Positions 8,422-54,524 of a stretch of DNA of 64,000 bases are shown here, piece after piece; the stretch's first letter is position 1; every line of letters begins with the position of its first letter. The notes beneath the pieces were generated by a model. It was not told the DNA's origin. It saw only the letters and a list, made by a program, of their open reading frames with translations, and made no database searches. The stretch lies in contig NZ_CP019510.1 in NCBI RefSeq assembly GCF_002002885.1, positions 2,418,001 to 2,482,000 of the forward strand. Direction: 5' to 3'. A program made the position numbers and the translations under genes. Source of the DNA: Janthinobacterium sp. LM6 (GTDB lineage Bacteria; Pseudomonadota; Gammaproteobacteria; Burkholderiales; Burkholderiaceae_D).

Positions 8422-8470
8422 ATTGTTACTGCTTGCTGCTTGTCGCTGCGTGTTCTGCAGCGAGGACAAA

Positions 8471-8739: not shown

Positions 8740-8751
8740 CGAATTAGGTAA

Positions 8752-18754: not shown

Positions 18755-20047
18755 TCAATTGGCGCGCACCGACGCGGCCGGCGCCGTGCGCCCGGCCAGG
18801 GTGCCTGTTTGCGCGGCCAGGCGCAGGCTGGCGGCGATCGCCTGCGCGCGCGTGTCTTCCAGCGAAAATTGCGCCTGGGTCGCTTCGCGCACGGCGTTGA
18901 GCACGTCGTTCCAGCTCTTGCGGCCGATCACGTACTGGCGCGCATACGATTCGAATACCTGCGTCGAGGTGGTGCTGGCTTCGCCCGCGTTGCCCAGGCG
19001 CTGGCGGCTCGCCTCGGCCTCGTTCCAGTCCAGGGTAAAACGCTCGCGCACCTCGCGTTCGGCCACGTCGTGCGCGGCGCGCGCGCCTTCGCGCCGCGCC
19101 ACGGCGGCATCCACGCCGGCCTTGGCCGACAGGCCCGCGCCCGGCTGCGCCTGCAGCACCAGCATGGCGCGCGTGCGGTTGTCGGCATTCATGCCGCCTG
19201 TCGGCTTTTCCATGCGCAGCACGACTTTCGGCATGTAGGCCGAGCGCTGCATGGTGATTTCGGAATCGGCGGCCTGCGCCTCGAAATCGAGGCGGTGCAG
19301 GGTGGGGGAATAGTCGATGGCCTGGCGCATGACCCGCTCCAGGCTGGCGTCGGGCAGCGGTTCGCCCACGCCGATGCCGGTGGTGCTGACGAGGCGCACG
19401 GGTTTGCCCGCCAGTTGCGACAGCTGCGCCAGCGCGTTTTCCAGTGCCTGGCGCGCATTCGACACGTCGTTGGCCGCCTGGTAGGCGCGCGACTCGGCCA
19501 GGCGTTGGTCCGTCTGCGAGCTGACCGACTGCACCACGCGGCGCTTGATCATGTCCAGCAGGCGCTGGTGCTCGGCCAGGCCCGCCTCGGCCGAGCGCAC
19601 GCGCGCCGTCTGGCGCAGCGCTTCCGTGTAGGCGGCGATCACGCGCAGGGACAGGGTCAGGCGTTCTTCTTCGATGGCCGCACCGGCCGCGTCGACCCGG
19701 CTGCCGGCGGCATCGATGCCGGCGTCGATGCGCCCGCCGCTCCACAGCGGCTGCTCGATGCGCACCACGCCGCCCGTTTCCTGCGAACCGGTGGGGACTT
19801 CCGCCGACAGGCTGGGAAAGCGCTGCCATTGCGCGCCATCGAGGTCGGCGCGCGCGGCCGCCTGCGCCGAACGCCTGCCCTGCACGGCGGGATGGCTTTG
19901 CAGCGCCTGCTGCAGGACCTGGTCGAAGCTCCAGGCGGTGGCGCCCTGGGCATGGGCGAAAGACGCCATGGATGCCATGGCCGCGGCCATCAGCAGGGCC
20001 GCGATGCGTGGCAGTGAAGACAATGCTGGGGAACCGCTTGATCTCAT
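18755..20047 (-). CDS. TolC family outer membrane channel protein
   Basis: This encodes a 430-residue protein with a signal peptide (IAALLMAAAMASMASFAHA). Two outer-membrane-efflux repeats follow: the first begins WSFDQVLQQALQSHPAVQGRRSAQAAARADLDGAQWQRFPSLSAE and the second includes ADSEITMQRSAYMPKVVLRMEK. Long heptad-rich helices fit the periplasmic tunnel. It completes a tripartite T1SS with the downstream ABC and HlyD-type genes. It lies 109 bases downstream of the giant substrate gene, separated by two hairpins that may set the substrate-to-exporter expression ratio. Confidence 0.9.
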   Translation of the reverse strand: MRSSGSPALSSLPRIAALLMAAAMASMASFAHAQGATAWSFDQVLQQALQSHPAVQGRRSAQAAARADLDGAQWQRFPSLSAEVPTGSQETGGVVRIEQPLWSGGRIDAGIDAAGSRVDAAGAAIEEERLTLSLRVIAAYTEALRQTARVRSAEAGLAEHQRLLDMIKRRVVQSVSSQTDQRLAESRAYQAANDVSNARQALENALAQLSQLAGKPVRLVSTTGIGVGEPLPDASLERVMRQAIDYSPTLHRLDFEAQAADSEITMQRSAYMPKVVLRMEKPTGGMNADNRTRAMLVLQAQPGAGLSAKAGVDAAVARREGARAAHDVAEREVRERFTLDWNEAEASRQRLGNAGEASTTSTQVFESYARQYVIGRKSWNDVLNAVREATQAQFSLEDTRAQAIAASLRLAAQTGTLAGRTAPAASVRAN

Positions 20048-20089
20048 CCCGTATTTTTCCGGCCCGAGGCCTGACGCATTTCAAGGTGG

Positions 20090-20143
20090 GCGGGAGCGCG
20101 CCGCCGTGCGCTCCCGCTGCCGCGCCAGGTGCGGCGCCTGGCG
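20090..20143 (-). terminator. Tandem hairpins between substrate gene and T1SS genes
   Basis: GCGGGAGCGC (20090-20099) pairs with GCGCTCCCGC (20108-20117), and a second GC-rich inverted repeat with arms CGCCAGG/GCCTGGCG follows. Neither has a T-run. On the minus strand they come directly after the stop of the alanine-repeat gene, where a partial terminator or 3'-end stabiliser would be expected. Confidence 0.5.
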
Positions 20144-20156
20144 TGGGGGCCCTGCT

Positions 20157-23100: not shown

Positions 23101-26100
23101 GTCGCGGCGGCGGCGGCATCGGCCGCTTGCGCCGCCTGCGCCGCTGCCAGCGAGGTGGCGGCCACGCCGGCGGCGGTCGCCGCGAGGGTGTCGTCCAGCT
23201 GCGCCGCCGTGGCCGCAGCTTGCGAGGTCAGGGCCAGCGTGGCGGCGGCGGTGGCGGCATTGTCGGCGGCAATCGCATTGTTCAGCGTGACCAGCGAGGC
23301 GGCAGCCGTGGCGGCCGTCGAGGCGGCAGCCGCGTCGTCGGCTTGCGCCGCCAACGCCGCCGTGTGCGACAGGCCGGCCGTGGTGGCGGCCACGGTGGCG
23401 GCCAGCGCGGCCACCAGGTCGAGTGGATGGGCGGCCGAATAGGCGGCGGCCGCGGCGGCGCTGGCGGCATCGTTGTTGGCGATGGTGGTCAGCGCGGCCG
23501 CGTCCGTCAGCGCCGCCTTGGTGGCGGCCACGGTGGCGGCCGTGACGTCGAGCGTATGCTGCGTGCCCAGCACGACGGCGTCGGTCAGGCCGGCGACGGT
23601 GGCGGCGGTCGCGGCGGCGGTGGCATTCACGGTCGCCACCAGGCCCAGGGCGACGGCGTCCGTCAGGTTGGCCGTCGTTTGCGCGGCGGTGGCGGCGGCC
23701 GCATCGACGGTGGCCGTCAGCCCCAGGGCGACGGCATCGGTCAGCGCGGCGGTGGCGGCGGCTGTGTTGGCGGCTGCCGTGGCGGCCGTCGAGACGGTGC
23801 CCAGGGCGACGGCGTCCGTCAGGTTGGCCGCCGTGGCAGCCAGGCCGGCGGCCGTGTTGGCGGCCGTCGAGACGAGGCCCAGTGCCACGGCATCGGTGAG
23901 GTTGGCCGTCGTCTGCGCCGTGGCGGCGAGCGCCGCATCGGCCGTGGCGACGAGGCCCAGGGCCGTGGCGTCCGTCAACGAGGCGGTGGTGGCCGCCGTA
24001 TTGGCGGCCGTGGTGGCGGCTGCCGAGAGCGTGCCCAGGGTAACTGCATCGGTCAGGTTGGCAACATTCGTCGCCGTATTGGCGGCGGCGGCGGCCGCCG
24101 CGGCGGCCAGGCCCAGGGCGGCAGCGTCCGTCAAGTTGGCCGTTGTCAGCAGGGTGGCGGCCAAGGTGGCATCGGCGGTCGAGATCACACCCAGCGCCGT
24201 GGCATCCGTCAGCGCCGCCAGGCTGGCGGCCGAGGCGGCGGCCAGGCCATCGGCGGTGGAAATGAGGCTCAGCGCGATGGCGTCCGTCTGGCCCGCCGTC
24301 GTGACGGCTGCGGCGGCGACCGCATCGGCGGTCGATGACACCACGGCCAGGGCCGCGGCATCGGTCTGGCCGGCCACGAGCTGTGCCGCGGTCAGGGCAT
24401 TTTGCGCCAGCGTATTGGCGGCGGTCAAGGTGGTGACCGCCGTCTGGGCAGCCAGTTCAGCGGCGGCGTCGGCGGTGGAGATCAGGCCCAGCGCGCCGGC
24501 ATCGGTCAGCGCGGCGGTGGCCGCTGCGGCCGTGGCTGCGGCCTGGGCCGCAGCGGCGGCGCTGACGGCCGAGATATCGATCCCGCCCAGCAGGGCGGCC
24601 GTTTCCGCCGCCGAGACGGCAGTGGCGGCTGCGTTGGCGAGCGCCACGGCGTCGGTCAGGTTGGCAGTGGTCAGCGCAGTCGCGGCCGCCAGCGCATCGG
24701 CGGCGGAGATGCCTGCGAGGAGGAGGGCGTCCGTCAGGCTGGCATCGGCATCGGCGCCATCGGCGTCGAGCTGCAAGGCGTTGACGGTGGCCGTCAGGTC
24801 GACGACGCTGGTCTGCCCGGCCGTGACGTTGGCGGCCAGGGCGGCGAGGTTGGCCAGGTTGAAGGCATTCAGGGCAACGTTGACATCCAGCAGGCTCGCT
24901 TGCGAATTGGCGGCCGCCGCATCCGCATCCGCCTGGTCGGCAGCTTGCTGCAGAGCAACTACATCGGTCTGGTCGGCCACTGCCTGGGCATTCGCGGCAT
25001 CGCTGGCTGCCGCCGCGTCGGCAGCGGCCAGGGCGGCAGCATCCGTCTGGTCGGCGGTGGTTTGCGCTGCCAGTGCGGCGGCAGCGTCATTATCGGAGAC
25101 GATTTGCAGCGCGGCCGCATCGGTCAGCGCCGCCTGCGCGGCGGCGGCGGTCGAGGTGTTGGCGGCGGCATCGGCCGTGATCTGCAGGGCGGCCGCGTCG
25201 CTCAGGTTGGCTGTCACCACGGCGTTGGCGGCGGCAGTGGCGGCAGTGGCGGCAGCGATGTCGAGCGCGGCGGCATCCGTGTTGCCGGCCAATGTGGCCG
25301 CTGTCGCCGCTGCGGCGGCATCGGCGCTGGAAATCAGGGCCAGCGCTGCCGCGTCGGTCAGGTCGGCCTGCGCCTGCGCCGCATCCGACGCCAGGGTGGC
25401 CGCATCGGCGATCAGCCCCAGGGTGGGCGCGTCCGTCATGTTGGCTTGTGTCTGCGCGTTTGCGGCGTTCGTGGCGGCGGCATCGGCGGCGGCCTGCAGG
25501 GCCACGGCATCGGTGGCGTTGGCGATCGAGGCATCCCAGGCGGCGACGCCGGCGGCGGCGTCCGCTGCCATGGTCAGCGTCACGGCGTCGGTGAGTCCTG
25601 CTTGCGTGCTGGCTGCCGCAGCGGCATTCGCTGCCGCCGTGGCGGCGACGCCCAGTGCCGCGGCGTCGCTGGCATTGGCGTTGGTTGCCGCATTCGCTGC
25701 CGCGGTAGCGGCCGCATTCGAGGCTGCGGTCAGGGCGGCGGCATCGGTGGCGGCGGCCACGCTGGCGGCCGCGGCGGCGGTGGCCGCATCGGCATCGGAG
25801 ACGAGTGTCAGGGCGGCGGCGTCCGTCAGGCTGGCCTGTATGCCGGCCGCGACGGCGGCATTGGCGGCGGCCGTTGCCGCCAGGTCCAGCGCGGCGGCGT
25901 CCGTGGCATTGGCCAGCGCCGTGGCGGTGGCGGCGGCGGCGGCATCATTGGCCGAGATGACGCCGAGCGCCGCCGCATCGGTCAGTGCTGCCTGGGTATT
26001 GGCGGCGGCGGAGACGACATCGGCTGCATCGGCGATTAATTGCAGTGCGGGGGCGTTGGTCTGGTCCGCTTGCGTCTGTGCCGCATCGGCAGCGGCGTGC

Positions 26101-42177: not shown

Positions 42178-42270
42178 GGAGACGTGGCCGAGTGGCCGAA
42201 GGCACATCCCTGCTAAGGATGCATACGGCTTATACCTGTATCGTGGGTTCGAATCCCACCGTCTCCGCCA
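42178..42270 (+). tRNA. tRNA-Ser (anticodon GCU)
   Basis: The 93-base class II tRNA begins GGAGACGTGGCCGAGTGG, has the anticodon loop CTGCTAA (anticodon GCU, reading AGC/AGU), a long variable arm (ATACGGCTTATACCTGTAT), T arm GGGTTCGAATCCC and an encoded CCA. The acceptor GGAGACG pairs with the 3' CGTCTCC. It lies downstream of lysC, as in many Burkholderiales. Confidence 0.96.
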
Positions 42271-42374: not shown

Positions 42375-42556
42375 GCCCAATCACCGCGCTGCGCGCGGGC
42401 CGTTGGCCGCGCAGCGGCCAACGCCGTCCCCTCACCTCAGGCTCTGGCGGCAAGCGCCCCCTCTGCATCAGCCCCCATCAGTACCCTCATTCCTACCCCC
42501 GTCCCGCCTCAGCAATAAATACAACAAGTGACTTAGTGTGAGTATTGACTCTTTGT

Positions 42557-42570
42557 CATTATGGATAATG
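42557..42570. promoter_or_regulatory. Inverted repeat upstream of the oxidase operon
   Basis: CATTAT-GG-ATAATG is a perfect 6-bp inverted repeat, 70-83 bases before the multicopper oxidase start in an AT-rich patch that also has TTGACT at 42545-42550. Its spacing suits an operator near the operon promoter. The regulator is unknown. Confidence 0.4.
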
Positions 42571-42639
42571 GCAATGTTATTAATAAAAATACGCATGCCC
42601 AGCCATGCTTCCATTGTCCAGTCCAATCGAGGAGTTGTC

Positions 42640-44685
42640 ATGTCCCACCGCCTTCCCCGCAGGTACGTGTCGCTGTGCCTGGCCGCCATGCCGTTCGCTT
42701 GCAGTGCCGCCTTCGCCGCAGAAAGCACGGTCAATCTGAATGTCGACCTGAACCTGCAGTCCGTGCCCAAACTCGAGCTGCGCCTGCTGCAGGAGCCGCC
42801 GAAGCTGAAGGCGCGCGCCAGGCCAGCCAACCGCGCGGCGAGCAAGCGCGACGAGTTTGAAAGGTCGTATGACCTGTACATCCGCTATGCCAACGGCAGC
42901 ATCTATAACCCGACCACGGCCAAGCATGACAAGGTGCGCCTGCGTTCCTACCAGCAGACGGACGGCCTGGCGCTCGATGGACGCGACGAGAATGCGGCCA
43001 CCTTCATGGCGCCCACCGTGGTGATGGCGCCGGGGCAAACCGTGCGCTTCAAGCTGCATAACCAGTTGCCGGCGCTGCCGGCCGAGCAGTGCGCGACGAG
43101 CGATATCAATGCGGCGCGTCCGCTTGGCTGCTTCAACGATACCAATCTGCATTCGCATGGCCTGTGGGTCTCGCCCTCGGGCAATAGCGACAACGTGTTG
43201 ATATCGATCAAGCCTGGCGTGGATTTTGAGTACGAATACAATATTCCCATCGACCACCCGGCCGGCACCTTCTGGTATCACCCGCACCAGCATGGCGCGA
43301 CGGCGATGCAGGTCGCCAGCGGCATGGCCGGCGCGCTGGTGGTCGAAGGCGACCGATATCCGACCGCCACGGCGAATGGCGACCTCGATGTGATACTGAA
43401 GCAATTCCAGCCCGACGATGGCAGCGGCAGCGCCGGCGAGGTGATACTGCTGCAGCAAATTCCCTATGACTGCCCCAGCAACAGCCTGACGCCGACGAAG
43501 CCGTGCGCCACGGATGGAGTCGGCGTGCTGGAGGATTTCAATCAGGTCAAGGATCCGGATGCCTGGCTGATGTCGGGCCGCTATACCTCCGTCAACGGCA
43601 AGGTGCAGCCGGTGCTGAAGATGAAGACGCAGCGCCTGTACCGCTGGCGCATGATCGACACGGGCTTTCAGGCAACGGTGGTGCTGCGCATCCGCCGTGC
43701 CAACGACCCGCAAAAGCTGTTCCGGGCGCTCGGCGTGGCCAACCAGGACAAGGACGTGATGGAGTTGTGCGATGGCGAGGACGTCACGCAATTCGAGGTG
43801 GCCAGCGATGGCTTGACGCACGACAAGATTATCCCCAAGACCTTGAATTACCTGCAGCCGGGTTACCGCAGCGATATTCTGTTTGCCCTGCCGAAAGCCG
43901 GTGCGTATTGCGTATATGCGGAAACCAACCTCAACAACATGACGACGATGCATGACGTCAACAACACGCGCCTGATCGGCGTGATCGCCGCCAAGACCAA
44001 CGCCAAGGCGTCCGCGCGCGCCAGGGCGGGCGAGTCGCCGCGCGATTTCCTGCTGGCCGAATTGCGCAACGCCGTCAAGAGCCTGCCCGGCGCCCAGTTG
44101 CCCGATAACGTCAAGAGCATCATCCTCGGCGACCTGGAGAATGGTCTCAAGCTCGGCAAGTTCGTCCCGCATGCGGGCTTCAGCGAGGCGGCAAAGGACG
44201 CGATGCGCGGCAAGAAGAAGGAGTATGTGACCTTCAATATTGCCAAGTTGGACGGCAAGGTCCGCTTCATGGTGGAAGGCAAGCCGGAAGACTCGCCGAT
44301 ACCCGAGCTGAAGTATGTATATGATCCGCACCGCGTCGACCACACGCTGGTGCTGGGCACCGAGCAGATCTGGGAGCTCGCGTCGAAGAATGGCAGCCAC
44401 CCCTTCCATATCCACGTCAACCCCTTCCAGATCATCGGCATTTCCCGCACCGACGGCGGCACGGTCAATGCGCAGTACAAGGATCTGATCGGCACGTGGA
44501 AAGACACCTTGCTGGTGATGGAGAACCACAAGATCGAGATTGCCACGCGTTACCAGCGCTACATCGGCGAATACGTGCTGCATTGCCACATCCTCGAGCA
44601 TGAAGACCAGGGCATGATGCAAAACGTCAAAGTGGTACTGCCGGATGGCAAGGGTGGTGGCGACGTGGGCGGACACGGACACTGA
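42640..44685 (+). CDS. Multicopper oxidase, secreted
   Basis: This encodes a 681-residue protein with a signal peptide (YVSLCLAAMPFACSAAFAAES). All copper motifs are intact: HLHSHGLWV and WYHPHQHG (types 2/3) in the first cupredoxin domain, HPFHIHVNPFQ, and HCHILEHEDQGMM in the last, whose Cys, +5 His and +10 Met form the type 1 site. It is longer than a typical CueO/CotA, with a helical Lys/Ala-rich insertion around residues 450-550. Such enzymes oxidise phenols, amines or metals with reduction of O2 to water. A GGAG site precedes the ATG at 42640. It heads the oxidase operon and ends 67 bases before the tyrosinase gene. Confidence 0.9.
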   Translation: MSHRLPRRYVSLCLAAMPFACSAAFAAESTVNLNVDLNLQSVPKLELRLLQEPPKLKARARPANRAASKRDEFERSYDLYIRYANGSIYNPTTAKHDKVRLRSYQQTDGLALDGRDENAATFMAPTVVMAPGQTVRFKLHNQLPALPAEQCATSDINAARPLGCFNDTNLHSHGLWVSPSGNSDNVLISIKPGVDFEYEYNIPIDHPAGTFWYHPHQHGATAMQVASGMAGALVVEGDRYPTATANGDLDVILKQFQPDDGSGSAGEVILLQQIPYDCPSNSLTPTKPCATDGVGVLEDFNQVKDPDAWLMSGRYTSVNGKVQPVLKMKTQRLYRWRMIDTGFQATVVLRIRRANDPQKLFRALGVANQDKDVMELCDGEDVTQFEVASDGLTHDKIIPKTLNYLQPGYRSDILFALPKAGAYCVYAETNLNNMTTMHDVNNTRLIGVIAAKTNAKASARARAGESPRDFLLAELRNAVKSLPGAQLPDNVKSIILGDLENGLKLGKFVPHAGFSEAAKDAMRGKKKEYVTFNIAKLDGKVRFMVEGKPEDSPIPELKYVYDPHRVDHTLVLGTEQIWELASKNGSHPFHIHVNPFQIIGISRTDGGTVNAQYKDLIGTWKDTLLVMENHKIEIATRYQRYIGEYVLHCHILEHEDQGMMQNVKVVLPDGKGGGDVGGHGH

Positions 44686-44752
44686 CCGTTCCTGGCGGCA
44701 GCGCGCCCGGCGCGCTTTCGCCTTTCCCAACCTGCTTCCGGAGCAATTGCCC

Positions 44753-46456
44753 ATGTTACGCATGAAAACTTCCCTCCTTCCCCTCCTGGCCGGCTTGCTG
44801 TGCGCGGGCGTCTGCACTGCGGTACAGGCGCAGGCTGGCGTATCTTGCCGCCCGGAATTGCAGGCCCAGGCGGAGCCGGGTGGCGCGCGCGTCGTGCGCT
44901 ACCGCAAGAATATCGATGAGCTGACCCCGGCCGAGCTTGACGCCTTCAAGCATGCGGTGAGCGAGATGAAACGCAAGAGCCAGGAAAACGTGTATGACCG
45001 GCGCGGCTTCCTGTGGCAAGCCTGGGTGCATAACTGCACCTCCGTCGATGTCTTCAATGACCGCCAGGCGGCCTTGCCAGGCGACAGGCTGAAGCAGTTG
45101 CTGGGCGATCCGACGCGCAACAGCTGCGACATTGCTTATTTCATCGACAAGGTGGCGACCGAGGACAATGCCCATGAGGAATTCCCGGGCGAGTGCGAGC
45201 ACCAGAAGAACACCTTCCTGCAATGGCACCGGGCGCAGCTGTACTTTTATGAGCAAGCCCTGCAGGCGGCCGACCCGAACGGCGAGCGTGGCCCCAGCAC
45301 GCGCAACGTCGCGTTGCCGTACTGGAACTTCACCCGCAAGCCTTCCGGCGTGCGTTATCCGAAAGCCTTCGAGGATGTCGATTCGCCGCTGTACGATGCC
45401 ACGCGCAAGAGGGAGGGGCTCGACAGCTCGCTGGCCACGGCTTCGCCCAACTTACTGGCCTACCAGATCTATTACATGGATTGGGCCGATTTTGGCGGCG
45501 ACGAATATGGCAGCCTGGGCGGCGGCAACCTGGAGACGAAGATCCACAATCACATGCACGCCACCTACATGGGCGGCAATATGGGCGACAACGTCACGGC
45601 CGGCCTCGATCCGCTGTTCTATGCCTTCCATAATTTCCTCGATTACAGTTTCGAGAAGTGGCTGGACGAGCATGGCGACGCCGGCATACGCGGCAGCGGG
45701 CGCACGGCGTTCATGCGCAGCGAACAGGACGCCAGCTTGCCACGGCCCGTCGGCTGGAGCGCCGGCAGCGGCGATGCCCAGCGCAGCGATTCGGGCGACT
45801 ATACGGCCAACATGGGCCAGGCGGTGCTGTACTTCGACACCCTCCGGCAAGGCTATGGCTTCCAGCCGCGCTATGGCGGCGAATTTGCCCGCAAGAAGGA
45901 TATCCAGGCTTTGATCGACCGGCACCAGCAGGCGGGGTTTGTATTCGGCGACAACCAGAAAAGCCTGTTCGCCGCCCTGCTCAGCGACGATGCGGCCGAT
46001 GGCGCGGTCGCCAGGCCCGACCTCACCGTGACCAGCGCCTACACGATCCCGGCGCGGCGGGTGGCCAGCGACAAGCGGGCGAACATGGTGCTGGACCGCG
46101 CGCATGCGGACGAAGACTACAGTTTTCAGGCCGATATCTACCTGTATCCCGCCAAGGTGACTGCGCGCATCGGCGACAAGGCGTTCCGCGACCGCTACCT
46201 GGTCACCAGCACCAGCCACTGGGCCCTGTCCGGTGCCCACCAGCATGATAAATATGTCATCGAAACGGATATCACGGGCATCGTCGACAGCCTGGTCCCC
46301 AAGAAGCGCAGGCAGGCCTGGCGCATCACGGCGGCCATCACCACGAATGACAAGGGCCGCGGCCTGATACGGCAAGGCGATTTTTCCACGCCCGTGATCC
46401 AGGTCGTCGACCGCCGCAAACCTGCCGAACCCACGTATGAGGAGAGCAAGCCATGA
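44753..46456 (+). CDS. Tyrosinase family protein, secreted
   Basis: This encodes a 567-residue protein with a signal peptide (LLPLLAGLLCAGVCTAVQAQA). CuA-site histidines are seen at H93 (AWVHNCTS), H150 (ECEHQKN) and H159 (FLQWHRAQLYFYEQ); CuB-site ones at H265/H269 (IHNHMHATYMGGN) and H293 (DPLFYAFHNFLDYSFEKW). The usual His-His pair of the last motif reads Phe-His, keeping the aligned ligand. A beta-rich C-terminal domain (~400-565) follows, possibly covering the active site. It may hydroxylate phenols or oxidise catechols. A GGAG site lies 9 bases before the ATG at 44753 (an ATG at 44762 is possible). It overlaps the next gene by 4 bases. Confidence 0.85.
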   Translation: MLRMKTSLLPLLAGLLCAGVCTAVQAQAGVSCRPELQAQAEPGGARVVRYRKNIDELTPAELDAFKHAVSEMKRKSQENVYDRRGFLWQAWVHNCTSVDVFNDRQAALPGDRLKQLLGDPTRNSCDIAYFIDKVATEDNAHEEFPGECEHQKNTFLQWHRAQLYFYEQALQAADPNGERGPSTRNVALPYWNFTRKPSGVRYPKAFEDVDSPLYDATRKREGLDSSLATASPNLLAYQIYYMDWADFGGDEYGSLGGGNLETKIHNHMHATYMGGNMGDNVTAGLDPLFYAFHNFLDYSFEKWLDEHGDAGIRGSGRTAFMRSEQDASLPRPVGWSAGSGDAQRSDSGDYTANMGQAVLYFDTLRQGYGFQPRYGGEFARKKDIQALIDRHQQAGFVFGDNQKSLFAALLSDDAADGAVARPDLTVTSAYTIPARRVASDKRANMVLDRAHADEDYSFQADIYLYPAKVTARIGDKAFRDRYLVTSTSHWALSGAHQHDKYVIETDITGIVDSLVPKKRRQAWRITAAITTNDKGRGLIRQGDFSTPVIQVVDRRKPAEPTYEESKP

Positions 46457-46812
46457 GCGAACGGACCAGCTTCAAGCGCGACGTGCAGGGCTTGTTTTCC
46501 CGCTACGTGGCCGACATGAACAAGATCAAGCTGTCGAACCCCGAGTCGACGGGCGTGCAGCGGCTGTACCTGAATGACTATGCGAGCGTGAAGGCGTTTG
46601 CCTGGCAAATCCAGGTGGCCATCCACGGTTACGACTATGACAGCCGCAACGCAAAATGGCTGGTGGACGCCGGGCACCGCCTGCGCGCGCCGGGAGGGCG
46701 GGAAGGCGAGTATGTCATGTCCGCGCCGCATCCGATGCCGCCCGACGGGCCGATGCCGCAGGAAGGCATCGATATCTTCGACCAGTGGGTCAGGGACGGC
46801 ATGCAGCCGTGA
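46453..46812 (+). CDS. Small protein of unknown family in the oxidase operon
   Basis: This encodes a 119-residue cytoplasmic protein with no signal peptide and no cysteine. It is rich in Tyr/Trp/Phe and has three histidines. The C-terminus (MPPDGPMPQEGIDIFDQWVRDGM) resembles the tail of some cytochrome c-like domains but lacks a CxxCH haem site. I do not recognise the family. Its start overlaps the tyrosinase stop (ATGA) and it ends 47 bases before the CTQ oxidase gene. It is therefore best placed to be a subunit, copper chaperone or maturation factor of one of the two flanking oxidases; that is inference from position. Confidence 0.75.
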   Translation: MSERTSFKRDVQGLFSRYVADMNKIKLSNPESTGVQRLYLNDYASVKAFAWQIQVAIHGYDYDSRNAKWLVDAGHRLRAPGGREGEYVMSAPHPMPPDGPMPQEGIDIFDQWVRDGMQP

Positions 46813-46859
46813 CTATCAGGCCAACCGGCACAGACACCCTTGATGATCAGGAGTTCAGC

Positions 46860-49046
46860 ATGGCATACACAGGTTTGAGAATTCACCCCGCCATCGGCAT
46901 CGCCCGCGTCGGCAACAGCGAAGAATACTATCTGGGCCCGGAAAGCCTGGCCGGCATGCCGCTGGCTGGCCAGGATGGCACGGGAGGCTTGCCGATCCGG
47001 CCCGGCACGGAAGACACGACCATCGCCAGCACCGAGTTGCGCGACGCCGGCGGAAAGCTCAAGCGGCAGGCGGCCCGCTTCCGGATTTACCAATATGCGT
47101 TCGACGCGGCGGACGGCGTGGAAAGCTACCCGCTGGGCCGGCGGGGCGCGGCGGCCGAAGTGGCCATCGGCAGCATGGTCGATGGCAAGATCGTCAAGGA
47201 CATCGTCTGGACCGTGCACCTGGCCAACAAGAAAGCCAATAGCTGGGAGGGCGGGGAAGGCGTGGCACCGTTCGACAAGCAGCGCGCGCCAGCCCTGCGC
47301 AATCCGGCCTTCGGCACACCAGGCTCGCCGCACTTCGGCACGCCGGCCGACCCACTGCGCCTGAAGCTGCTGGTCATCGACCCTGGACCGCGCACCGTGC
47401 AGGCTTCGCGCCAGGGCGTGCAGCAGTTCGACACATCGACGCCGCCGTCGTGCGCGGATGCGGCCAGCGGCGCCGTGCGCAGCCTGCCCGACTATCCGGT
47501 GTCGTTCCCGCGTGGCGGGCCGCCTGGCGCGCCGGCGCAAGGCCCTGGCGCCATCATCGCCTCGCTGGGCGCCATCGCGACGGAAACGAATGGACGTTTG
47601 CTGGTGCTGGGCGGCTATGGCAAGGCATGCGGCTTCGACGCGCAAGGCAATTATTCGCCCGCCGCCGTCCTGCACGACAATGTCAACAACGACAACTGGT
47701 TCGATGACGTGGCCGATGGTCCCGTCACGGCCATGCTGCTCTTCGCCGACGGCACGGCGCGCAGCGTCGAGGGCAGCGCCTGGGTGATATCGAGCGACCC
47801 GTCGTACGCGCCGCAAACGGCGAACGTTGTCTCGCTGTGGGACGACCTGTATTGCACCTGGCTGGAAAAAATGGCGCTGCGCCCCGCCGTCTACGCGGAT
47901 GGCAGTTACCAGACGGGCTACCGGAGCAATTTCAGCACCGATGTCCAGCCCATCCTGCGCGCGGCCTCGCTGCAGCGCTGGACGACCAGCTTGCCGCCCA
48001 GGGCGATCAAGGAGCACGACTTGCTGGGCAAGATGAAGGCGGACGGCCTGAGCTACCCGATCATGAATTTCATCCGCCATCCCGACCAGACGGGCGCGCC
48101 GTCGCTGAAGCCGCAAATGCCGCTGTCGCTGGGCGACGCGGGCAGCAGCCTGCTGACCCTGACCCGGGCGCAGTATTTTTTCATGGACCAGTGGGCGCAT
48201 GGCCAGTACGTGGCCGACAGCGGCGATTTCCTGCTGGGCGCGGGCGAAGCGCTCGACCGCACCGTCCTGTTCAACTGCCTGGGCGGCCGCTACAGCCCCG
48301 GCATCGAGATGGGTTTTATCGTGCGCGACTCCGGCCTGTACCGGCAGGCGTGGCGGCGCCATGATGCCGGCGGCCCGTTCCGCATCAATGCACAGCATCT
48401 CGATTACGCAGCCGCCGTCAGGGACCAGCCCTTCCTTGGCGCCGGCTACATGCCGCTGCGCGGCGGCGAGGTGCAGCCCGGCGACGTGTCGAAGTTCATG
48501 GCCTTGCCGTGGCATACCGATTACAACTCGTGCGCCACGCATTTGCCCGATCCGAATCCCGGCGGCAAGGTACTCAATAACCAGCAGGCGATCGATGCGG
48601 CCACGGCGCTCAAGGGCAATGGCTACAATACCTTGCTGTATTCCTCCTGGCCGGCGCAGCGGCCCGTAGCCGTGTACACGTATGACGACGTCGTCGCCAA
48701 TGGCGGCGAACTGGCGACGCCGCGCTATTCCGTGCGCGGCAAGGGCACGCGGGCCGATGGGGTGCCATCGACCACAGCGGAAAATGCGGAAATCGACCGG
48801 CCCGCCATGCATGTGGGCCGCTACCAGGACCGCGCGCAGTTCCTGCTGAACTGGCACCGCATCGGCGTGGTCGTGCAAAGCACGGTGATTGCGCGCAAGG
48901 CTGGCGAGAAGGCCATCTGCAAGGATTACTACCTGGAAGTCGAAAGCCTGTTCGACAGCGATGAAAGCAACCTGGTCGAGTATTGGCGCAACACGGCCAT
49001 CGACAAGGTGTACCGGCCGAAGCCGCAGACGAAACCGAAGCCCTGA
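46860..49046 (+). CDS. LodA/GoxA-family CTQ-dependent oxidase
   Basis: This encodes a 728-residue protein without a signal peptide, starting MAYTGLRIHPAIGIARVGNSEEYYLGPE, the LodA family hallmark. The quinone cofactor residues are recognisable: Cys473 in LFNCLGGRYSPGIEMGF and Trp551 in MALPWHTDYNSC, 78 residues apart (65 in Marinomonas LodA). In characterised relatives these crosslink to cysteine tryptophylquinone, and the enzyme oxidises L-lysine (LodA) or glycine (GoxA), releasing H2O2 and ammonia. The substrate here cannot be read from sequence. An AGGAG site lies 6 bases before the ATG. The next gene encodes the LodB-type maturation flavoprotein, overlapping by 1 base. Confidence 0.88.
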   Translation: MAYTGLRIHPAIGIARVGNSEEYYLGPESLAGMPLAGQDGTGGLPIRPGTEDTTIASTELRDAGGKLKRQAARFRIYQYAFDAADGVESYPLGRRGAAAEVAIGSMVDGKIVKDIVWTVHLANKKANSWEGGEGVAPFDKQRAPALRNPAFGTPGSPHFGTPADPLRLKLLVIDPGPRTVQASRQGVQQFDTSTPPSCADAASGAVRSLPDYPVSFPRGGPPGAPAQGPGAIIASLGAIATETNGRLLVLGGYGKACGFDAQGNYSPAAVLHDNVNNDNWFDDVADGPVTAMLLFADGTARSVEGSAWVISSDPSYAPQTANVVSLWDDLYCTWLEKMALRPAVYADGSYQTGYRSNFSTDVQPILRAASLQRWTTSLPPRAIKEHDLLGKMKADGLSYPIMNFIRHPDQTGAPSLKPQMPLSLGDAGSSLLTLTRAQYFFMDQWAHGQYVADSGDFLLGAGEALDRTVLFNCLGGRYSPGIEMGFIVRDSGLYRQAWRRHDAGGPFRINAQHLDYAAAVRDQPFLGAGYMPLRGGEVQPGDVSKFMALPWHTDYNSCATHLPDPNPGGKVLNNQQAIDAATALKGNGYNTLLYSSWPAQRPVAVYTYDDVVANGGELATPRYSVRGKGTRADGVPSTTAENAEIDRPAMHVGRYQDRAQFLLNWHRIGVVVQSTVIARKAGEKAICKDYYLEVESLFDSDESNLVEYWRNTAIDKVYRPKPQTKPKP

Positions 49047-50191
49047 TGGCGGCGGCTGCAGACAGTCCCGGCGCGGCCGGGCCATCGCGGCCGCGCTACC
49101 GGGTCGCCATCATCGGCGGCGGTCCGGCGGGCTGCGCCTGCGCGCTGGCGCTGGCGCAGCATGGCGTGCACGACGTGCTCGTGATCGAGGCGGGCGACTA
49201 CGCTCAATTTCGCATCGGCGAAAGCATTCCGCCCGAAGCCAACCGTCTGTTCCAGGCGCTGGGCATTGCGCAGGATTTTTTCGCCGAGGCGCACGCGCCT
49301 TGCCATGGCAGCTGTTCCTGGTGGGGCAGCGACAAGCGCGGCTACAACGACGCGCTGCTGCATCCGCTGGGCCATGGCTGGCACCTGGAGCGTTCCCGTT
49401 TCAATGGCTTCCTGGCGCGCCAGGCGCGCTTGCGCGGGGCGGAAGTGCTGCTGCGCGCCAGCCTGGCCGCGTCGGCCCCGGCGCAAGGCGGCGGTTTTAC
49501 CCTGGAATTGATGCTGGGCGATCCCGCGCACCCGCGACTGGCCAGCATCCATGCCGATGTGGTGGTCGACGCCAGCGGCACGCGCGCCGTCTTCGCGCGC
49601 CAGCGCGGCAGCCGCAAGGTCGCAACGCTGCCGCTGGTATGCCTGGCGATGCGCTTTGCCGCGCCAGACGGCCCCCGCTCCGGCCTGACGCACCTGGAAG
49701 CGGTCGAACATGGCTGGTGGTATGGCGCCCATCTGCCTGACGCCACCTTGCTGCTGGCGTTTTACAGCGATGCGGCCACCGTCAGGGCGCGGCGCCTGCA
49801 GCATGCCGGGCACTGGCTGGACGGGCTGGCGGCCGCGCCCAACACGGCTGCGCTGGCCCGCGGCGCGGCGCCGCTGGCAGGCGGCGTGCAGAGTTTTCCC
49901 GCGCCGTCCTACTGCCTCGAGCAACTGCATGGCGACGGCTGGCTGGCCATCGGCGACGCCGCCTCGGCCTACGATCCCGTCACTTCGCAAGGCATCGTCA
50001 AGGCGCTGGCCAACGGCATGGCGGCCGCTGGCGCCATCGCCGGCCACGCCACCCTGGACGCGGTGGCGCAGACGGTGGCGCTGCGCCATGCGCAATACCT
50101 GGCGCAGCGCCAGCAGTACTACGGCTGGGAGCAGCGCTGGCCCGCCGCGCCGTTCTGGCGCCAGCTGCATGCGGGGGCGCAGGCGCGCTAG
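49046..50191 (+). CDS. LodB-like FAD-dependent maturation protein
   Basis: This encodes a 381-residue flavoprotein of the tryptophan-halogenase/monooxygenase-like group. The N-terminal VAIIGGGPAGCACALALAQHGV binds FAD. FRIGESIPPEANRLFQALGI is the GESI motif of LodB/halogenase-like proteins, and DGWLAIGDAASAYDPVTSQGIVKALANG is the second FAD motif. The WxWxIP halogenase motif is not seen. In Marinomonas and Pseudoalteromonas, LodB/GoxB are needed to form the CTQ cofactor of the partner oxidase. It overlaps the LodA-type gene in TGATG. Confidence 0.88.
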   Translation: MAAAADSPGAAGPSRPRYRVAIIGGGPAGCACALALAQHGVHDVLVIEAGDYAQFRIGESIPPEANRLFQALGIAQDFFAEAHAPCHGSCSWWGSDKRGYNDALLHPLGHGWHLERSRFNGFLARQARLRGAEVLLRASLAASAPAQGGGFTLELMLGDPAHPRLASIHADVVVDASGTRAVFARQRGSRKVATLPLVCLAMRFAAPDGPRSGLTHLEAVEHGWWYGAHLPDATLLLAFYSDAATVRARRLQHAGHWLDGLAAAPNTAALARGAAPLAGGVQSFPAPSYCLEQLHGDGWLAIGDAASAYDPVTSQGIVKALANGMAAAGAIAGHATLDAVAQTVALRHAQYLAQRQQYYGWEQRWPAAPFWRQLHAGAQAR

Positions 50192-50196
50192 CGGTC

Positions 50197-50721
50197 TTAT
50201 CGCCGCTGCGCTTCGCGTTCGAGCGTATCCTTGCCGATGATCTTCAGGCTGGCGCCGCCCTTGAAGGGCAGCGCTTCCTCGCTGCCCGCCGTCTGGATGC
50301 CGGCCGAGACGCCGATTTCGGCCGTCACATCGATGAATTCCGTACGGAACATGCGCAGCTCGGTGTGCTTGATGACGCTTTGCAGCGCAATCGACTGACC
50401 CGGCGCGATGGGGGTGAAGGCACGCTTGAGCGCGTGATTGGCCAGGCCCGTCTTCAATACCTGGCTTTGTTCGCTCGCGTTGTCGATCAGGCGCATATTG
50501 GGCCCCCGCGCTTGCATGTACTGGAGCGGATAGCCGACTTCCCCGTTGCCGATATTCTTGATGACCACTTCGATGCGCATGTCGCTGCCCGTGAAAATGC
50601 AGGCCGGATTATCGATGCAGTGGGCGCTGATGGAGAGGATGTCGTTCGGCATGGCGTTTCCTGGGAGTTGTAGGGACACTGCGAGCAGTGCGATTAGGAG
50701 CCGTTCAGGATGATATCGCAT
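50197..50721 (-). CDS. Secreted protein, candidate immunity protein for the VgrG effector
   Basis: This encodes a 174-residue protein with an N-terminal signal peptide (LLIALLAVSLQLPGNA) and a mature ~150-residue beta-rich domain (ISAHCIDNPACIFTGSDMRIEVVIKNIGNGEVGYPLQYM), with two cysteines 5 residues apart. Its start lies inside the 3' end of the VgrG gene (28-base overlap, 50694-50721). Effector-immunity pairs of T6SS are usually arranged like this, and periplasmic immunity matches an effector acting on the envelope. The family is not recognised; the role is inferred from position and export. Confidence 0.75.
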   Translation of the reverse strand: MRYHPERLLIALLAVSLQLPGNAMPNDILSISAHCIDNPACIFTGSDMRIEVVIKNIGNGEVGYPLQYMQARGPNMRLIDNASEQSQVLKTGLANHALKRAFTPIAPGQSIALQSVIKHTELRMFRTEFIDVTAEIGVSAGIQTAGSEEALPFKGGASLKIIGKDTLEREAQRR

Positions 50722-53700
50722 TTGATCTGCCTTCCTATTTTCGTCCGCAGCAATTCCTGCACTTCGATGGCGATCTGCCAGGCATGCCGGTCACGGATGA
50801 CGATGGAGCCGGCCGAGTTCATGATGTTGGCAGCGGCCGGTTCCGGTTCCTCATCGTCCGAGAGCGAAGGCACGGGCGCATCCCAGCTGCCGTCCGGCTT
50901 CTTGTATTTGACGGTCTCGTCGTCGCCTTCCACATACGAATATTCATCCGGCAGGCCATAGCAGTGACCGAATTCATGCGCGTGCGTCTGGCCATCGGTC
51001 GAGGCGGACACGTCGATGATGGTACCCGTCACGCTTTCGCGGTCGTAGCGTTTGTGGATCTGCATGACGTAATGCTCGTTGCTCTCCACATAAACGACGC
51101 GGTAGATGATGGGCAGGGTGCGCGTGCCGCATTCCGGATCGCTGATTTTCATCTGGAATTTATTGTTCCAGTGGCTTTCCAGCCCCGTGGTGGCGATGCC
51201 CTTGACGTACTTGATGACGGCGGCGCGCTGCTTGGCCCGCGTGGCGGCCTGCGGGGTACCTTTCTCGCGGTCTTCCAGCGCCTGGTCGGCCGGCTCGAGC
51301 ACCGTGATCACCTTGACGCGCAATTCGGCGATGATGCCGGTATTCGACTTGACGGGCACGTAGATCTTGTAGCGCACGTTGTCGAAATAGTCATGCGGTG
51401 CGCCGGTGGCGCCGAAGGTGTTGTTGTAGCGCGGCACGCTGGAGACGCTAATCTCCTTTTCATAGTCGGCGATCCAGCAGGCGGGGCGCTTGATCAGCAC
51501 TTCCTTGCGCTGTTTGTTGTCGACGGGGCTGGTGCTGGACGTGCCCGTTGCCTTGAATTTCGGTTCGGGTGTGGGCGGCGCCTTGGCCGTCGTGCCGGGC
51601 GCGGGCGCCTTGGCGCGCGTGTCCGAGCCGGGTGGCGGGGCAGGAGCCGGGTCAGGGCTGTTCTCCGTCTCGGGCATCTGGCCCGGCGATTTGAGCAGTT
51701 CGATCACCAGCGCCTCGACGGCGGCAGCGGCCACGATGTGGGTCAAGCCCCTGGCGTCCGTCATGCCCGTTTCGATGCTGCCGTCGGCGCGCTTGACGCG
51801 ATACGGCTGGCGCGGCATCAGCTCACCCGTGTCGCGGTCTTTCAGCACGAAGCCTTCGTCGAACAGTTTCAAGCGGCTGTCCGGCAGCGGCGGCAGGCCG
51901 GCGGCAACGCTGGCGCCGCCGTTGAAGATATGCTGCCCGCCCTTGACCGTAAAATGGCCGGGGCAGCGGAAGGTGATGTCGCCGCCTTCGAGCGTGATCG
52001 AGGATTGTCCCGCCTGCAGGACGATTTTCTGGTTGGCCTTGATGTCGATGCTGTCGCTCACGGAGATCACCGTGACGGCTTGATCGGCGAGGATTTCCAG
52101 CTGGTCGGTATGCGCTTCGAGCGAGACGGGGCCGTTGCCCGCGACGGCCTTGATGCCGCCTTCCTGACTGAACAGCGTGGCCGCGTTGGCCGCTACCGAG
52201 GCGACCGTCTGGCCGGCCGTCATGTGCAGGTCGGCCTGCGCCGTCCAGTGCAGATGCTGGCCCGCGAACAGCACGGTCGACGCGGGCGTGGCCCAGTTGA
52301 TGCTGGTGGGCGACTCCATCAGCACCAGCGGCTGGGCGTAGCGTTCCACGGGCTGCGCCGCATCGGGCGCGCGCGTGCCGCTGCCCGCCTTGCTGGCTTC
52401 CTGGCCGCCGACGTTGGCCTGGTACTTGCCGTCCTGCCCCGGGTCGATCTGCTTCGCCATGTCCAGCTGCGCCTGGTTCGCATCCTTGCTGACGAGGGCT
52501 TTTTGCTGGCTTGCCGATGTCGCCACGGTCTTGCTCAGTTCACAGGCGCCGCGCAGCAGGGCCAGCGCTTCCCTGGTGTCGAGCTGGCTCGACGCCACGC
52601 CGGCGCCCTGGCGCGCGCGCGCCGTGGTCGAGAGCAGCACGCCTTCGCCGGCGCGCAACATGGCCCAGGCATCGGTGCGCAACTCAAAGCCGCTGCCGCG
52701 GTAGCTGCCCCGTTGCGCCGAACTGGCGCCTTGCTGTACCAGGTAGCCCAGATTGAGCTCGGTGGCGGCGCTGCTCGAAGCGAGCCGGGTGCGCAGCTGG
52801 CCCTGGGTATCGTCCAGCACCCACTGGTTGTAGCCGGCACCGTCGAAATTGTGGCTGTGCATGCCCGACAGGACGCCCGCGTGGTTGACGCCCGAATCCT
52901 CGCCGGCCGCATACGGCGGCGTGTCGCTGCCCGTGTAGAGCTGGGCGACGACCAGCGGGCGGTCCATGTCGCCTTCGATGAAGTCGACCAGCACTTCGGT
53001 GCCGAGGCGCGGCGTGAATTGCGAGCCCCAGTTCGGACCGGCCAGCGCTTCGGCCACGCGCACCCAGGCGCCGGAAGCCTCGTTGCCGGGCGCGTTGCCC
53101 TGCTGGTCGGTGTTGTGCGCAAGGCCGCCCGGATTGGCGGCGCTGCCGCGCTGCCAGGCAAACTGGATGCGCACCTGGTGGTCGCGGCCCGTGGTGGCCA
53201 CGCTGTCGGCCAGGCCCACCACCAGCGCCGTCTGCGGGCCCAGCGCCACGGCCGGCGCGCGCGCGGCGGTGGCGCGCGGCACGATGGCCACGCTGGCGCG
53301 CACGCAGCCGAAGCGGTTGCGGTAGGTGCCCGGCTCGATCTGGCCGGCGATCCAGTCGGCCACGCCGCCCAGGCCGGCCGTCCTGGCCAGCTTCGACAGC
53401 ACGCCGCCCAGGCTGGCGCCAGCTGGCCCTGTATTGTTGCGCGCCTGGTGCTCGGCCCACAGTACGGTGAAGGCGTTGGCGCCATCGGCATGCTGCTCGT
53501 GCTGCAGCAGGCGCATGGCGTGGCCGGCGGCCAGGCGGCGCACGGCACCGGCGCCGTCGAACTGCTTGTTGTCCAGTTCCAGCGCTTGCAGCATGCGCTC
53601 GCTGTACGGCCCGGCCGCCGCGCGGTCGGCGTGCAGGCGCTCGCCGGCGCCGTCATACACGGCCAGCTGCGGCAATTGCCCGGCCTCCAGGCTGGAGACC

Positions 53701-54524
53701 TGCTCGGCGGCGGGCGCCGTCACCTGCGCCGGGTCCCAGCTGCTGATGCTGACGGCATTCGATTGCACCTGGCGGCGCGCGCCGAAGCGGTCGATGGCGT
53801 CGTCGGTATCGGTGGCGCGCACGCCGTGAAAGCGCATGTCGCCGCCGCCCGGCGTCTGCGGCGCGGTGGCCTTGCCGTCGAAGATCACCAGTTTGTGCCT
53901 GGCCTGCGCCTCGCCCTCGCCGCCTTCCTGCGCGCCGCCGGGCTGGTCGTGCTCGAAGCGCCAGCTCAGGCCTTCGGCGGCCAGCAGGCGCGCGAAGAAA
54001 TCGAAGTCGCTTTCGCGGTACTGGGTGCGGATGGCGCGGGTGGTCAGCGCCTGGCTGACGTCGAATTCGAAGCGCAGCTGCGGGTAGTCGGCCAGCAGCT
54101 CGGTGACGATGTCGCGCGCATTCTTGTCCTGGAAAATGTAACTGTCGCGGCGCAGCTGCAGCAGGGCCAGGGCCGGCTCGAGGCGCAGCCGGTAGCGCGC
54201 CACGCCGCCGTCGGCGCCCAGCCAGGCGCAATCGGTGCAGATGCCGTGCCAGGCGCGCTGGCTGCCGTCGGGCTGCAGCAGGCACAGCGTCATTTCCTCG
54301 CCGATGAAGGAGGCCAGGTCGAGGCTGGCCGCGGTGCTCAGCGCGTCGACCTCGAAGCGGAACAGTTCATTGACGGCCTCGCGGCCCTCGAACTGTTCCG
54401 CCATCAGCGATTCCGGCTGCCCGGACTGCTGGGCCGTGGCCAGGCTGATGAGCCGTGCATACTGGCTCAGGCCCGTGCCGAACTGGCCCGTTGGTGCCGG
54501 GGTTTGTTGTGCGCCGCCCATCAC
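50694..54524 (-). CDS. vgrG: VgrG with C-terminal zinc-metallopeptidase-like effector domain
   Basis: This encodes a 1,276-residue 'evolved' VgrG. Residues ~20-620 are the gp27/gp5-like spike (RFEVDALSTAASLDLASFIG; YRESDFDFFARLLAAEGLSWRFEHD; RLGTEVLVDFIEGDMDRPLVV). Then comes a DUF2345-like beta-helical stretch (~640-900), a Pro/Ala-rich linker (~985-1040) and a C-terminal domain with HEFGHCYGLPDEY: H1183, H1187 and D1193 form HExxHxxGxxD, with NIMNSAG as a likely Met-turn. This predicts a secreted zinc peptidase delivered on the T6SS spike. It overlaps tssL by 4 bases upstream and the candidate immunity gene by 28 bases downstream. Confidence 0.9.
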   Translation of the reverse strand: MMGGAQQTPAPTGQFGTGLSQYARLISLATAQQSGQPESLMAEQFEGREAVNELFRFEVDALSTAASLDLASFIGEEMTLCLLQPDGSQRAWHGICTDCAWLGADGGVARYRLRLEPALALLQLRRDSYIFQDKNARDIVTELLADYPQLRFEFDVSQALTTRAIRTQYRESDFDFFARLLAAEGLSWRFEHDQPGGAQEGGEGEAQARHKLVIFDGKATAPQTPGGGDMRFHGVRATDTDDAIDRFGARRQVQSNAVSISSWDPAQVTAPAAEQVSSLEAGQLPQLAVYDGAGERLHADRAAAGPYSERMLQALELDNKQFDGAGAVRRLAAGHAMRLLQHEQHADGANAFTVLWAEHQARNNTGPAGASLGGVLSKLARTAGLGGVADWIAGQIEPGTYRNRFGCVRASVAIVPRATAARAPAVALGPQTALVVGLADSVATTGRDHQVRIQFAWQRGSAANPGGLAHNTDQQGNAPGNEASGAWVRVAEALAGPNWGSQFTPRLGTEVLVDFIEGDMDRPLVVAQLYTGSDTPPYAAGEDSGVNHAGVLSGMHSHNFDGAGYNQWVLDDTQGQLRTRLASSSAATELNLGYLVQQGASSAQRGSYRGSGFELRTDAWAMLRAGEGVLLSTTARARQGAGVASSQLDTREALALLRGACELSKTVATSASQQKALVSKDANQAQLDMAKQIDPGQDGKYQANVGGQEASKAGSGTRAPDAAQPVERYAQPLVLMESPTSINWATPASTVLFAGQHLHWTAQADLHMTAGQTVASVAANAATLFSQEGGIKAVAGNGPVSLEAHTDQLEILADQAVTVISVSDSIDIKANQKIVLQAGQSSITLEGGDITFRCPGHFTVKGGQHIFNGGASVAAGLPPLPDSRLKLFDEGFVLKDRDTGELMPRQPYRVKRADGSIETGMTDARGLTHIVAAAAVEALVIELLKSPGQMPETENSPDPAPAPPPGSDTRAKAPAPGTTAKAPPTPEPKFKATGTSSTSPVDNKQRKEVLIKRPACWIADYEKEISVSSVPRYNNTFGATGAPHDYFDNVRYKIYVPVKSNTGIIAELRVKVITVLEPADQALEDREKGTPQAATRAKQRAAVIKYVKGIATTGLESHWNNKFQMKISDPECGTRTLPIIYRVVYVESNEHYVMQIHKRYDRESVTGTIIDVSASTDGQTHAHEFGHCYGLPDEYSYVEGDDETVKYKKPDGSWDAPVPSLSDDEEPEPAAANIMNSAGSIVIRDRHAWQIAIEVQELLRTKIGRQIKCDIILNGS

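What the first reader, a model, noticed from the sequence alone, without database searches (positions are those of the whole stretch)
42640..50191. Copper/quinone oxidase operon: multicopper oxidase, tyrosinase, small protein, CTQ oxidase, LodB
Three unrelated O2-using oxidases and a CTQ-maturation flavoprotein lie in one co-directional run, the last four genes overlapping or closely spaced. Marinomonas mediterranea has comparable enzyme types (laccase-like, tyrosinase, LodA) but this compact arrangement is unusual to me. Two products carry Sec signals and two do not, so they must act in different places or use another route. Possible outcomes: melanin or quinone chemistry, H2O2-based antibiosis, or oxidative crosslinking.
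Basis: partly seen in the sequence, partly recalled or inferred. Interest (0 to 1): 0.88.

Follow-up and report, generated by a model that had tools for sequence, protein, structure and literature searches.

The report
Copper pigment operon with CTQ oxidase
A five-gene operon of Janthinobacterium joins two copper enzymes, of kinds that make melanin in a soil bacterium, to a quinone-cofactor oxidase that should make hydrogen peroxide; a similar gene set was reported in 2015, but this version has a different small protein and looks independently assembled.

Summary
Catalytic residues are intact. The host is a Janthinobacterium.

The idea is not new. 'Group ID' lodA operons with tyrosinase, MCO and a small gene were described in 2015 (PMC4417212), and an MCO-small gene-tyrosinase cluster makes melanin in Sinorhizobium meliloti (PMC7010606).

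This is a distinct variant. MCO-TYR-SML is a conserved core: of 15 named TYR loci, SML follows TYR in 15, MCO precedes in 13, LodAB follows in 5. The LodA clade also exists without copper enzymes. SML is unrelated to the group ID small protein. Trees separate the two versions, so LodAB probably joined MCO-TYR at least twice.

In Janthinobacterium the operon is patchy (8 of 40 genomes held), mostly beside a tRNA-Ser. TYR-SML-LodA comes in two diverged types (5 and 3 genomes), while MCO and LodB do not.

Best reading: copper-dependent phenol oxidation (melanin-like pigment) coupled to amine oxidation and H2O2, probably protective. Substrates, pigment and the role of SML are untested.

The parts
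42178..42270 (+). tRNA-Ser (GCT), left border of a variable site
   Evidence: ARAGORN, Rfam RF00005; follows lysC in 15 of 15 fetched Janthinobacterium genomes without the operon
42521..42579 (+). conserved leader with palindrome CATTATGGATAATG (42557-42570); possible promoter/operator
   Evidence: block alike in 7 Janthinobacterium loci, palindrome perfect in 3 of them; not alike in 2 Undibacterium loci. The sigma-70 consensus scan called no + strand promoter here
42640..44685 (+). multicopper oxidase, McoA-like, signal-like N-terminus
   Evidence: Pfam Cu-oxidase_2/_3; 41% identity over 661 columns to S. meliloti GR4 McoA; motifs HSH, HPH, HPFHIH, HCH
44753..46456 (+). tyrosinase (type 3 copper), signal-like N-terminus, C-terminal beta-rich stretch
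   Evidence: Pfam Tyrosinase E 3.4e-25; H93, H150, H159, H265, H269, H293 invariant in 14 sequences; weak model (mean pLDDT 64.7) best matches latent plant polyphenol oxidases, TM-score about 0.4
46453..46812 (+). SML, 119-aa tyrosinase-linked protein, no signal-like N-terminus
   Evidence: no Pfam, NCBIfam or PDB sequence match; beside TYR in 15 of 15 loci
46860..49046 (+). LodA/GoxA-family CTQ oxidase
   Evidence: Pfam LodA_N and LodA_C; D554, C558 and W597 invariant in 14 family members, among them one that passes the LodA cut-off and one that passes the GoxA cut-off
49046..50191 (+). LodB-like FAD-dependent protein, presumed CTQ maturase
   Evidence: NCBIfam LodB 234 bits, GoxB 188 bits, both below the cut-off of 400

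Best explanation
It is a copper-dependent phenol-oxidation (melanin-like pigment) operon to which a CTQ amine or amino-acid oxidase and its maturase were added. Proposed mechanism: MCO and tyrosinase are exported and turn phenols into quinones that polymerise; SML, whose start overlaps the tyrosinase stop, serves the tyrosinase (metallation, folding or assembly). LodB makes the CTQ cofactor of LodA in the cytoplasm, and LodA oxidises an unidentified amine or amino acid to an oxidised product, ammonia and H2O2, perhaps outside the cell like LodA of Marinomonas. Together they would lay down an oxidised, protective and mildly antimicrobial layer under copper or competitor stress. Shown here: gene identities, intact catalytic residues, conserved modules, separate ancestry of two such sets. 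Shown by others: McoA and MepA make melanin in S. meliloti; in Marinomonas LodA is secreted and LodB stays in the cell. Inferred: substrates, pigment, location, role of SML, joint function.
For: MCO is 41% identical over 661 columns to GR4 McoA; deleting mcoA or mepA lowers melanin there, deleting both abolishes it, and the double mutant is more sensitive to Myxococcus (PMC7010606, passages). In 15 TYR loci SML follows TYR in 15 and MCO precedes in 13. LodAB pairs with MCO-TYR in Oxalobacteraceae and, in another architecture, in rhizobia and in one Burkholderiales genome; trees keep the sets apart. Catalytic residues are conserved. Among 294 family genomes SML is in 12 (a thirteenth, weak hit dropped), LodA (E up to 1e-40) in 12, both in 9 (Fisher p 1e-12, not corrected for kinship: at most two clades). 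In the genus TYR and LodA are in the same 8 of 40 genomes. TYR-SML-LodA varies as a block.
Against: No expression, pigment or enzyme data exist for this operon here. The tyrosinase is only distantly like MepA (27-28% over stretches of 81 and 67 columns), so melanin is carried over mainly from the MCO and the pairing. In S. [quoted passage not shown] LodA fails both curated equivalog cut-offs, so its substrate is open; the 2015 paper reports no lysine oxidase activity in a group ID organism. SML has no signal-like N-terminus although its presumed partner does, and had no PDB fold match. Two weak SML-like hits (G562, G175) have no TYR, MCO or LodAB match within 15-18 kb. Of the 22 papers that hold both Janthinobacterium and tyrosinase (titles and abstract starts of 15 seen) none appeared to report such a pigment.
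Confidence: 0.5

Rival explanations
1. H2O2 weapon: LodA is the main product, an antimicrobial amino-acid oxidase like marinocine, and MCO-TYR-SML protects the producer by handling copper and phenols or by making an antioxidant coat.
For: Group IA LodA proteins are antimicrobial amino-acid oxidases (PMC4417212 section 9), and Marinomonas LodA is secreted (PMC2855505 passages). In the window the operon lies beside a T6SS VgrG gene.
Against: MCO-TYR-SML stands without LodAB in most named loci (LodAB in 5 of 15), and this LodA scores 215 bits against a LodA cut-off of 600. The VgrG module occurs at the site without the operon in 2 of 15 genomes and is not found beside 3 of the 7 other operons.
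Confidence: 0.25
2. Oxidative cross-linking of protein or matrix: tyrosinase makes quinone residues, LodA makes aldehydes from lysine side chains or amines, and the products couple into a sheath.
For: Tyrosinase and amine-oxidase products are chemically complementary (general chemistry, recalled), and TYR-SML-LodA vary as one block.
Against: No structural-protein substrate gene lies in the operon; no LodA-family enzyme acting on protein-bound lysine was met in the passages read.
Confidence: 0.12
3. Neighbourhood without functional coupling: two oxidase cassettes came to lie together at a variable tRNA-Ser site and share a promoter.
For: The site is variable; an integrase follows the tRNA in one genome without the operon, and an integrase-like gene (by eye) with a copy of the tRNA 3' end precedes the operon in SUN073.
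Against: The order is kept in Janthinobacterium and Undibacterium, the MCO, TYR and LodA trees each hold the same six rows together, and LodAB stands with MCO-TYR a second time in group ID loci.
Confidence: 0.13

Closest known systems
Group ID lodA-like operons (Campillo-Brocal et al. 2015, PMC4417212); architecture seen here in Mesorhizobium huakuii 583, Rhizobium ruizarguesonis NZLR24 and an unnamed Burkholderiales genome (L111)
   Same: MCO, tyrosinase, LodA-like, LodB-like and one small gene, co-directional and close
   Different: There the small gene (138-142 aa) lies between lodA and lodB and belongs to another family (P0006); the tyrosinase has an extra N-terminal part and, by eye, no signal-like N-terminus; the one LodA compared falls on another branch
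S. meliloti GR4 mcoA-hypothetical-mepA melanin cluster on pRmeGR4b (PMC7010606)
   Same: MCO 41% identical over 661 columns, next to a tyrosinase and a small protein
   Different: No LodAB among the features of the 16-kb stretch; the small protein is of the P0006 family and lies between MCO and tyrosinase; MepA is distant from this tyrosinase
Marinomonas mediterranea PpoA laccase, PpoB1/PpoB2 tyrosinase and helper, LodA/LodB (PMC2855505, passages)
   Same: Same three oxidase classes, all affected there by the histidine kinase PpoS
   Different: There in separate loci; PpoB2 is described as like COG5486 transmembrane metal-binding proteins, which SML, by eye, does not resemble
Streptomyces MelC1 helper (caddie) with MelC2 tyrosinase (PMC2855505 passage; PMC6312201 abstract start in a listing)
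   Same: Small accessory protein encoded next to a tyrosinase
   Different: No sequence comparison was made; homology is not claimed

Membership tests
LodA/GoxA CTQ oxidase family | LodA_N and LodA_C domains | tested here: met
   Pfam E 2.8e-49 and 2.8e-35
LodA/GoxA CTQ oxidase family | Cys and Trp that form CTQ | tested here: met
   C558 aligns with C516 of LodA (3weu); C558 and W597 invariant in 14 members
LodA/GoxA CTQ oxidase family | lodB-like gene next to it | tested here: met
   1-nt overlap; best NCBIfam hits LodB and GoxB, below cut-off
LodA lysine epsilon-oxidase (equivalog) | NF038172 score of at least 600 bits | tested here: not met
   215 bits; control from P. piscicida 1132 bits
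GoxA glycine oxidase (equivalog) | NF038173 score of at least 750 bits | tested here: not met
   137.5 bits; control from Martelella 1189 bits
LodB maturase (equivalog) | NF038171 score of at least 400 bits | tested here: not met
   234 bits
LodA-like group ID operon | tyrosinase and MCO in the same operon | tested here: met
   co-directional and adjacent; one transcript not shown
LodA-like group ID operon | small gene of 138-142 aa between lodA and lodB | tested here: not met
   lodA and lodB overlap; P0006 shows no relative in the genome at E up to 1, in a search without a positive control. The paper itself lists one group ID member without the small gene
LodA-like group ID operon | LodA falls in the group ID clade | tested here: inconclusive
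   one representative (R. ruizarguesonis, assigned by architecture) lies outside the 10-row clade of this LodA (100/100); the paper's own sequences were not compared
Type 3 copper tyrosinase | six copper-binding histidines | tested here: met
   invariant in 14 sequences; which histidines bind copper is recalled from the family
Multicopper oxidase | HxH and HCH copper motifs | tested here: met
   motif roles recalled
Melanin-forming McoA-MepA pair | melanin lost on deletion | not testable with these tools
   bench test needed

The most novel reading that the evidence does not exclude
Tyrosinase, SML and LodA form one co-adapted unit: SML is a new family of tyrosinase partners (conserved Met22, His93, Met95, Met117, perhaps a Cu(I) site), and this LodA clade acts on the amine side of the same phenol-derived or protein substrate, so that quinone and aldehyde chemistry are coupled into a new defensive polymer; the unit is exchanged between strains as an allelic cassette.
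Probability: 0.17. Interest if true: 0.72.

Novelty: new variant of a known kind. Interest (0 to 1): 0.45.

Why it matters
It sharpens a 2015 remark into something testable: LodAB appears to have joined an MCO-tyrosinase pair at least twice, which argues for shared chemistry. It also separates the parts (MCO-TYR-SML core, optional LodAB) and points to a conserved, unannotated tyrosinase neighbour that can be deleted and assayed alone.

Tried and rejected
SML as a haemless cytochrome c: the profile's best PDB hit was cytochrome c 2d0s at E 0.23, not significant, and Foldseek gave 12 hits, best E 2.3; left open. SML-like domain fused to the N-terminus of group ID tyrosinases: hhalign probability 9.7%, rejected. 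SML as the group ID small protein: no blastp match between P0003 and P0006 at E up to 1, rejected. Linking the operon to the VgrG module: the module occurs without the operon in 2 of 15 genomes and is not found beside 3 of 7 other operons, rejected. SML as strictly tied to tyrosinase: two weak hits, G562 and G175, have no TYR nearby; they may be chance. Plasmid search with P0002: 6 records, all distant tyrosinases. Draw of 398 genomes of the phylum with the SML profile: 2 matches, the window's own and G562. The sigma-70 scan gave no + strand promoter just before MCO. An earlier count said MCO was present wherever the contig reaches; that was too strong: L050 has 4.9 kb before TYR without MCO, and L054 is too short to tell. 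VIA-align was not available. Literature searches on the topic.
Full report
What is there. The five genes exist at the coordinates given, on one strand, with two overlaps and gaps of 67 and 47 nt. Pfam and NCBIfam support the four enzyme assignments. The 119-aa protein matches no family in Pfam or NCBIfam and no PDB sequence. The genome is one contig of 6.29 Mb.

Catalytic residues. In the LodA-like protein C558 aligns with C516 of LodA in the PDB match. D554, C558 and W597 are invariant in 14 family members, among them one that passes the LodA equivalog cut-off (1132 bits) and one that passes the GoxA cut-off (1189 bits). The window protein passes neither (215 and 137.5 bits), so its substrate cannot be named. 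Six histidines of the tyrosinase copper site are invariant in 14 sequences (their role is recalled). The MCO has its copper motifs. With P0002 as query no other tyrosinase was found in this genome.

Modules. A scan of the genome collection with the tyrosinase profile used two short peptide patterns and gave 15 named loci; it is therefore biased to this subfamily, and the 15 are not independent (two are Novispirillum itersonii, for example). The SML profile finds SML beside TYR in 15 of 15 (13 of the 15 are members of that profile, L050 and L052 are not, and in L052 SML is interrupted by a stop). SML alone as a tblastn query finds it in 14 of 15. MCO is found in 13 of 15: L050 lacks it within 4.9 kb and L054 is too short to tell. 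LodAB follows in 5 of 15, all Janthinobacterium or Undibacterium; L054 is again too short. The loci span Betaproteobacteria, Novispirillum, Pseudoalteromonas peptidolytica and Bacteroidota (Roseivirga, Reichenbachiella). Conversely, the LodA clade of the window occurs without MCO-TYR in Xanthomonas sacchari and Pseudoalteromonas xiamenensis, behind a different upstream gene, and in an Oxalobacteraceae genome (L035). Against a strict link, two weak SML-like hits (G562, G175) have no TYR, MCO or LodAB match in the stretches fetched.

The published relatives. Group ID operons were described in PMC4417212 (passages and sections). M. huakuii 583 and R. ruizarguesonis NZLR24 have MCO-TYR-LodA-small-LodB; an unnamed Burkholderiales genome shows the same order (L111), and a second genome found with the same query has TYR-LodA-LodB with an MCO on the other strand (L110). 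Their small protein P0006 does not match SML, but it is about 50% identical to the hypothetical protein between mcoA and mepA of S. meliloti GR4. PMC7010606 reports that deletion of mcoA or mepA lowers melanin and that the double mutant makes none; the double mutant was more sensitive to Myxococcus, while the single mutants were more resistant (passages). The window MCO is 41% identical to McoA. In the trees the eight Oxalobacteraceae MCOs form a clade (100/99) without the rhizobial ones, the 15 TYRs of the named loci that were used form a clade (98/96) without MepA and the group ID tyrosinases, and this LodA sits in a 10-row clade (100/100) without the R. ruizarguesonis protein. Several of these trees have long branches, which the program flagged. 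Within the MCO and LodA trees the sets with both modules are separated by rows with only one, so the plainest reading is at least two joinings of LodAB to an MCO-TYR pair; one joining with several losses is not excluded.

Setting in Janthinobacterium. In the genus, 8 of 40 genomes held match the LodA query and the same 8 match the TYR query. Of the 7 other carriers, 5 have lysC and tRNA-Ser just before the operon. In SUN073 (L032) an integrase-like gene and a copy of the tRNA 3' end stand there instead, and in its near relative G700 (L113) neither lysC nor the tRNA was found in the 4.2 kb upstream. Of 20 listed non-carriers 15 were fetched; in 15 of 15 lysC-tRNA-Ser is present with none of the five genes in the following 12 kb or so, and in 2 of these the VgrG module follows the tRNA directly. 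So it is a patchy block at a variable tRNA site. A leader of about 60 bases before MCO is alike in the seven Janthinobacterium loci compared; its palindrome is perfect in 3 of the 7.

Cassette exchange. Pairwise dS between the window and SUN073 or J. violaceinigrum is 0.19-0.28 for MCO and LodB but 0.44-0.63 for TYR, SML and LodA; between those two strains it is 0.22-0.36 throughout. Between the window and the four other genomes of its type the values are 0.15-0.36 for all genes. Nucleotide identity falls near 44.6 kb and recovers near 49.0 kb, close to the TYR start and the LodA end at 300-column resolution. A further genome found afterwards, G700, shows the same pattern against the window (MCO 0.27, LodB 0.22; TYR 0.65, SML 0.63, LodA 0.48), but it is a near relative of SUN073 (dS 0.08-0.12), so it adds little independence. 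The three middle genes were most likely exchanged together, perhaps once.

SML. AlphaFold2 gives a fair small model (pLDDT 84, pTM 0.78) with no significant PDB match. D10, M22, G34, L40, Y43, V46, A56, H93, M95, P96, P97, W112, G116 and M117 are invariant in 14 sequences. In a search limited to the fetched loci the profile also finds, more weakly, two proteins of an MCO-TYR cluster on a Mesorhizobium plasmid (P0014 E 6e-6; P0008 E 0.004), one of them directly after its tyrosinase. A service role for the tyrosinase is inferred from position and co-occurrence, not shown.

Verdict.

Noticed in passing
50197-54524 (-): VgrG with a C-terminal metallopeptidase-like stretch (Pfam M6 E 0.002, below its cut-off) and an overlapping 174-aa ORF with, by eye, a signal-like N-terminus: looks like a T6SS effector with a candidate immunity gene.
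   Followed up: partly
42178-42270; L094 1758-2966; L032 (about 15.4-16.6 kb, - in the reversed view): tRNA-Ser(GCT) looks like an integration hotspot: a phage-type integrase (Pfam) lies shortly after it in one genome, and in SUN073 an integrase-like gene and a copy of the tRNA 3' end stand upstream of the operon.
   Followed up: partly
L042 7898-9820 (-), genome about 3.0 Mb: Second LodA/GoxA-family gene with a LodB-like neighbour in the window's genome; GoxA score 425.6 bits against a cut-off of 750.
   Followed up: partly
L061 470-11884: Mesorhizobium sp. AR10 plasmid cluster: radical SAM protein, FAD monooxygenase, MCO, P0006-family protein, tyrosinase, SML-like proteins, cytochrome P460, M4 peptidase and emfourin; possibly a peptide- or cofactor-modifying system.
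   Followed up: no
L062 5989-8633; L052 10840-11367: The group ID lodA of M. huakuii 583 is split into two ORFs, and SML of P. peptidolytica is interrupted by an in-frame stop.
   Followed up: no
L068 7995-8387 and plasmid hits of P0006: P0006 relatives occur in 107 plasmid records, 58 Sinorhizobium and 42 Rhizobium; in GR4 the gene stands between mcoA and mepA. Its function is unknown.
   Followed up: partly
8022-8836 (-): Four clustered tRNA-Leu(CAG) genes.
   Followed up: no
20001-26000: Stretch of 73-76% G+C; the other 2-kb blocks of the window range from 55 to 71%.
   Followed up: no
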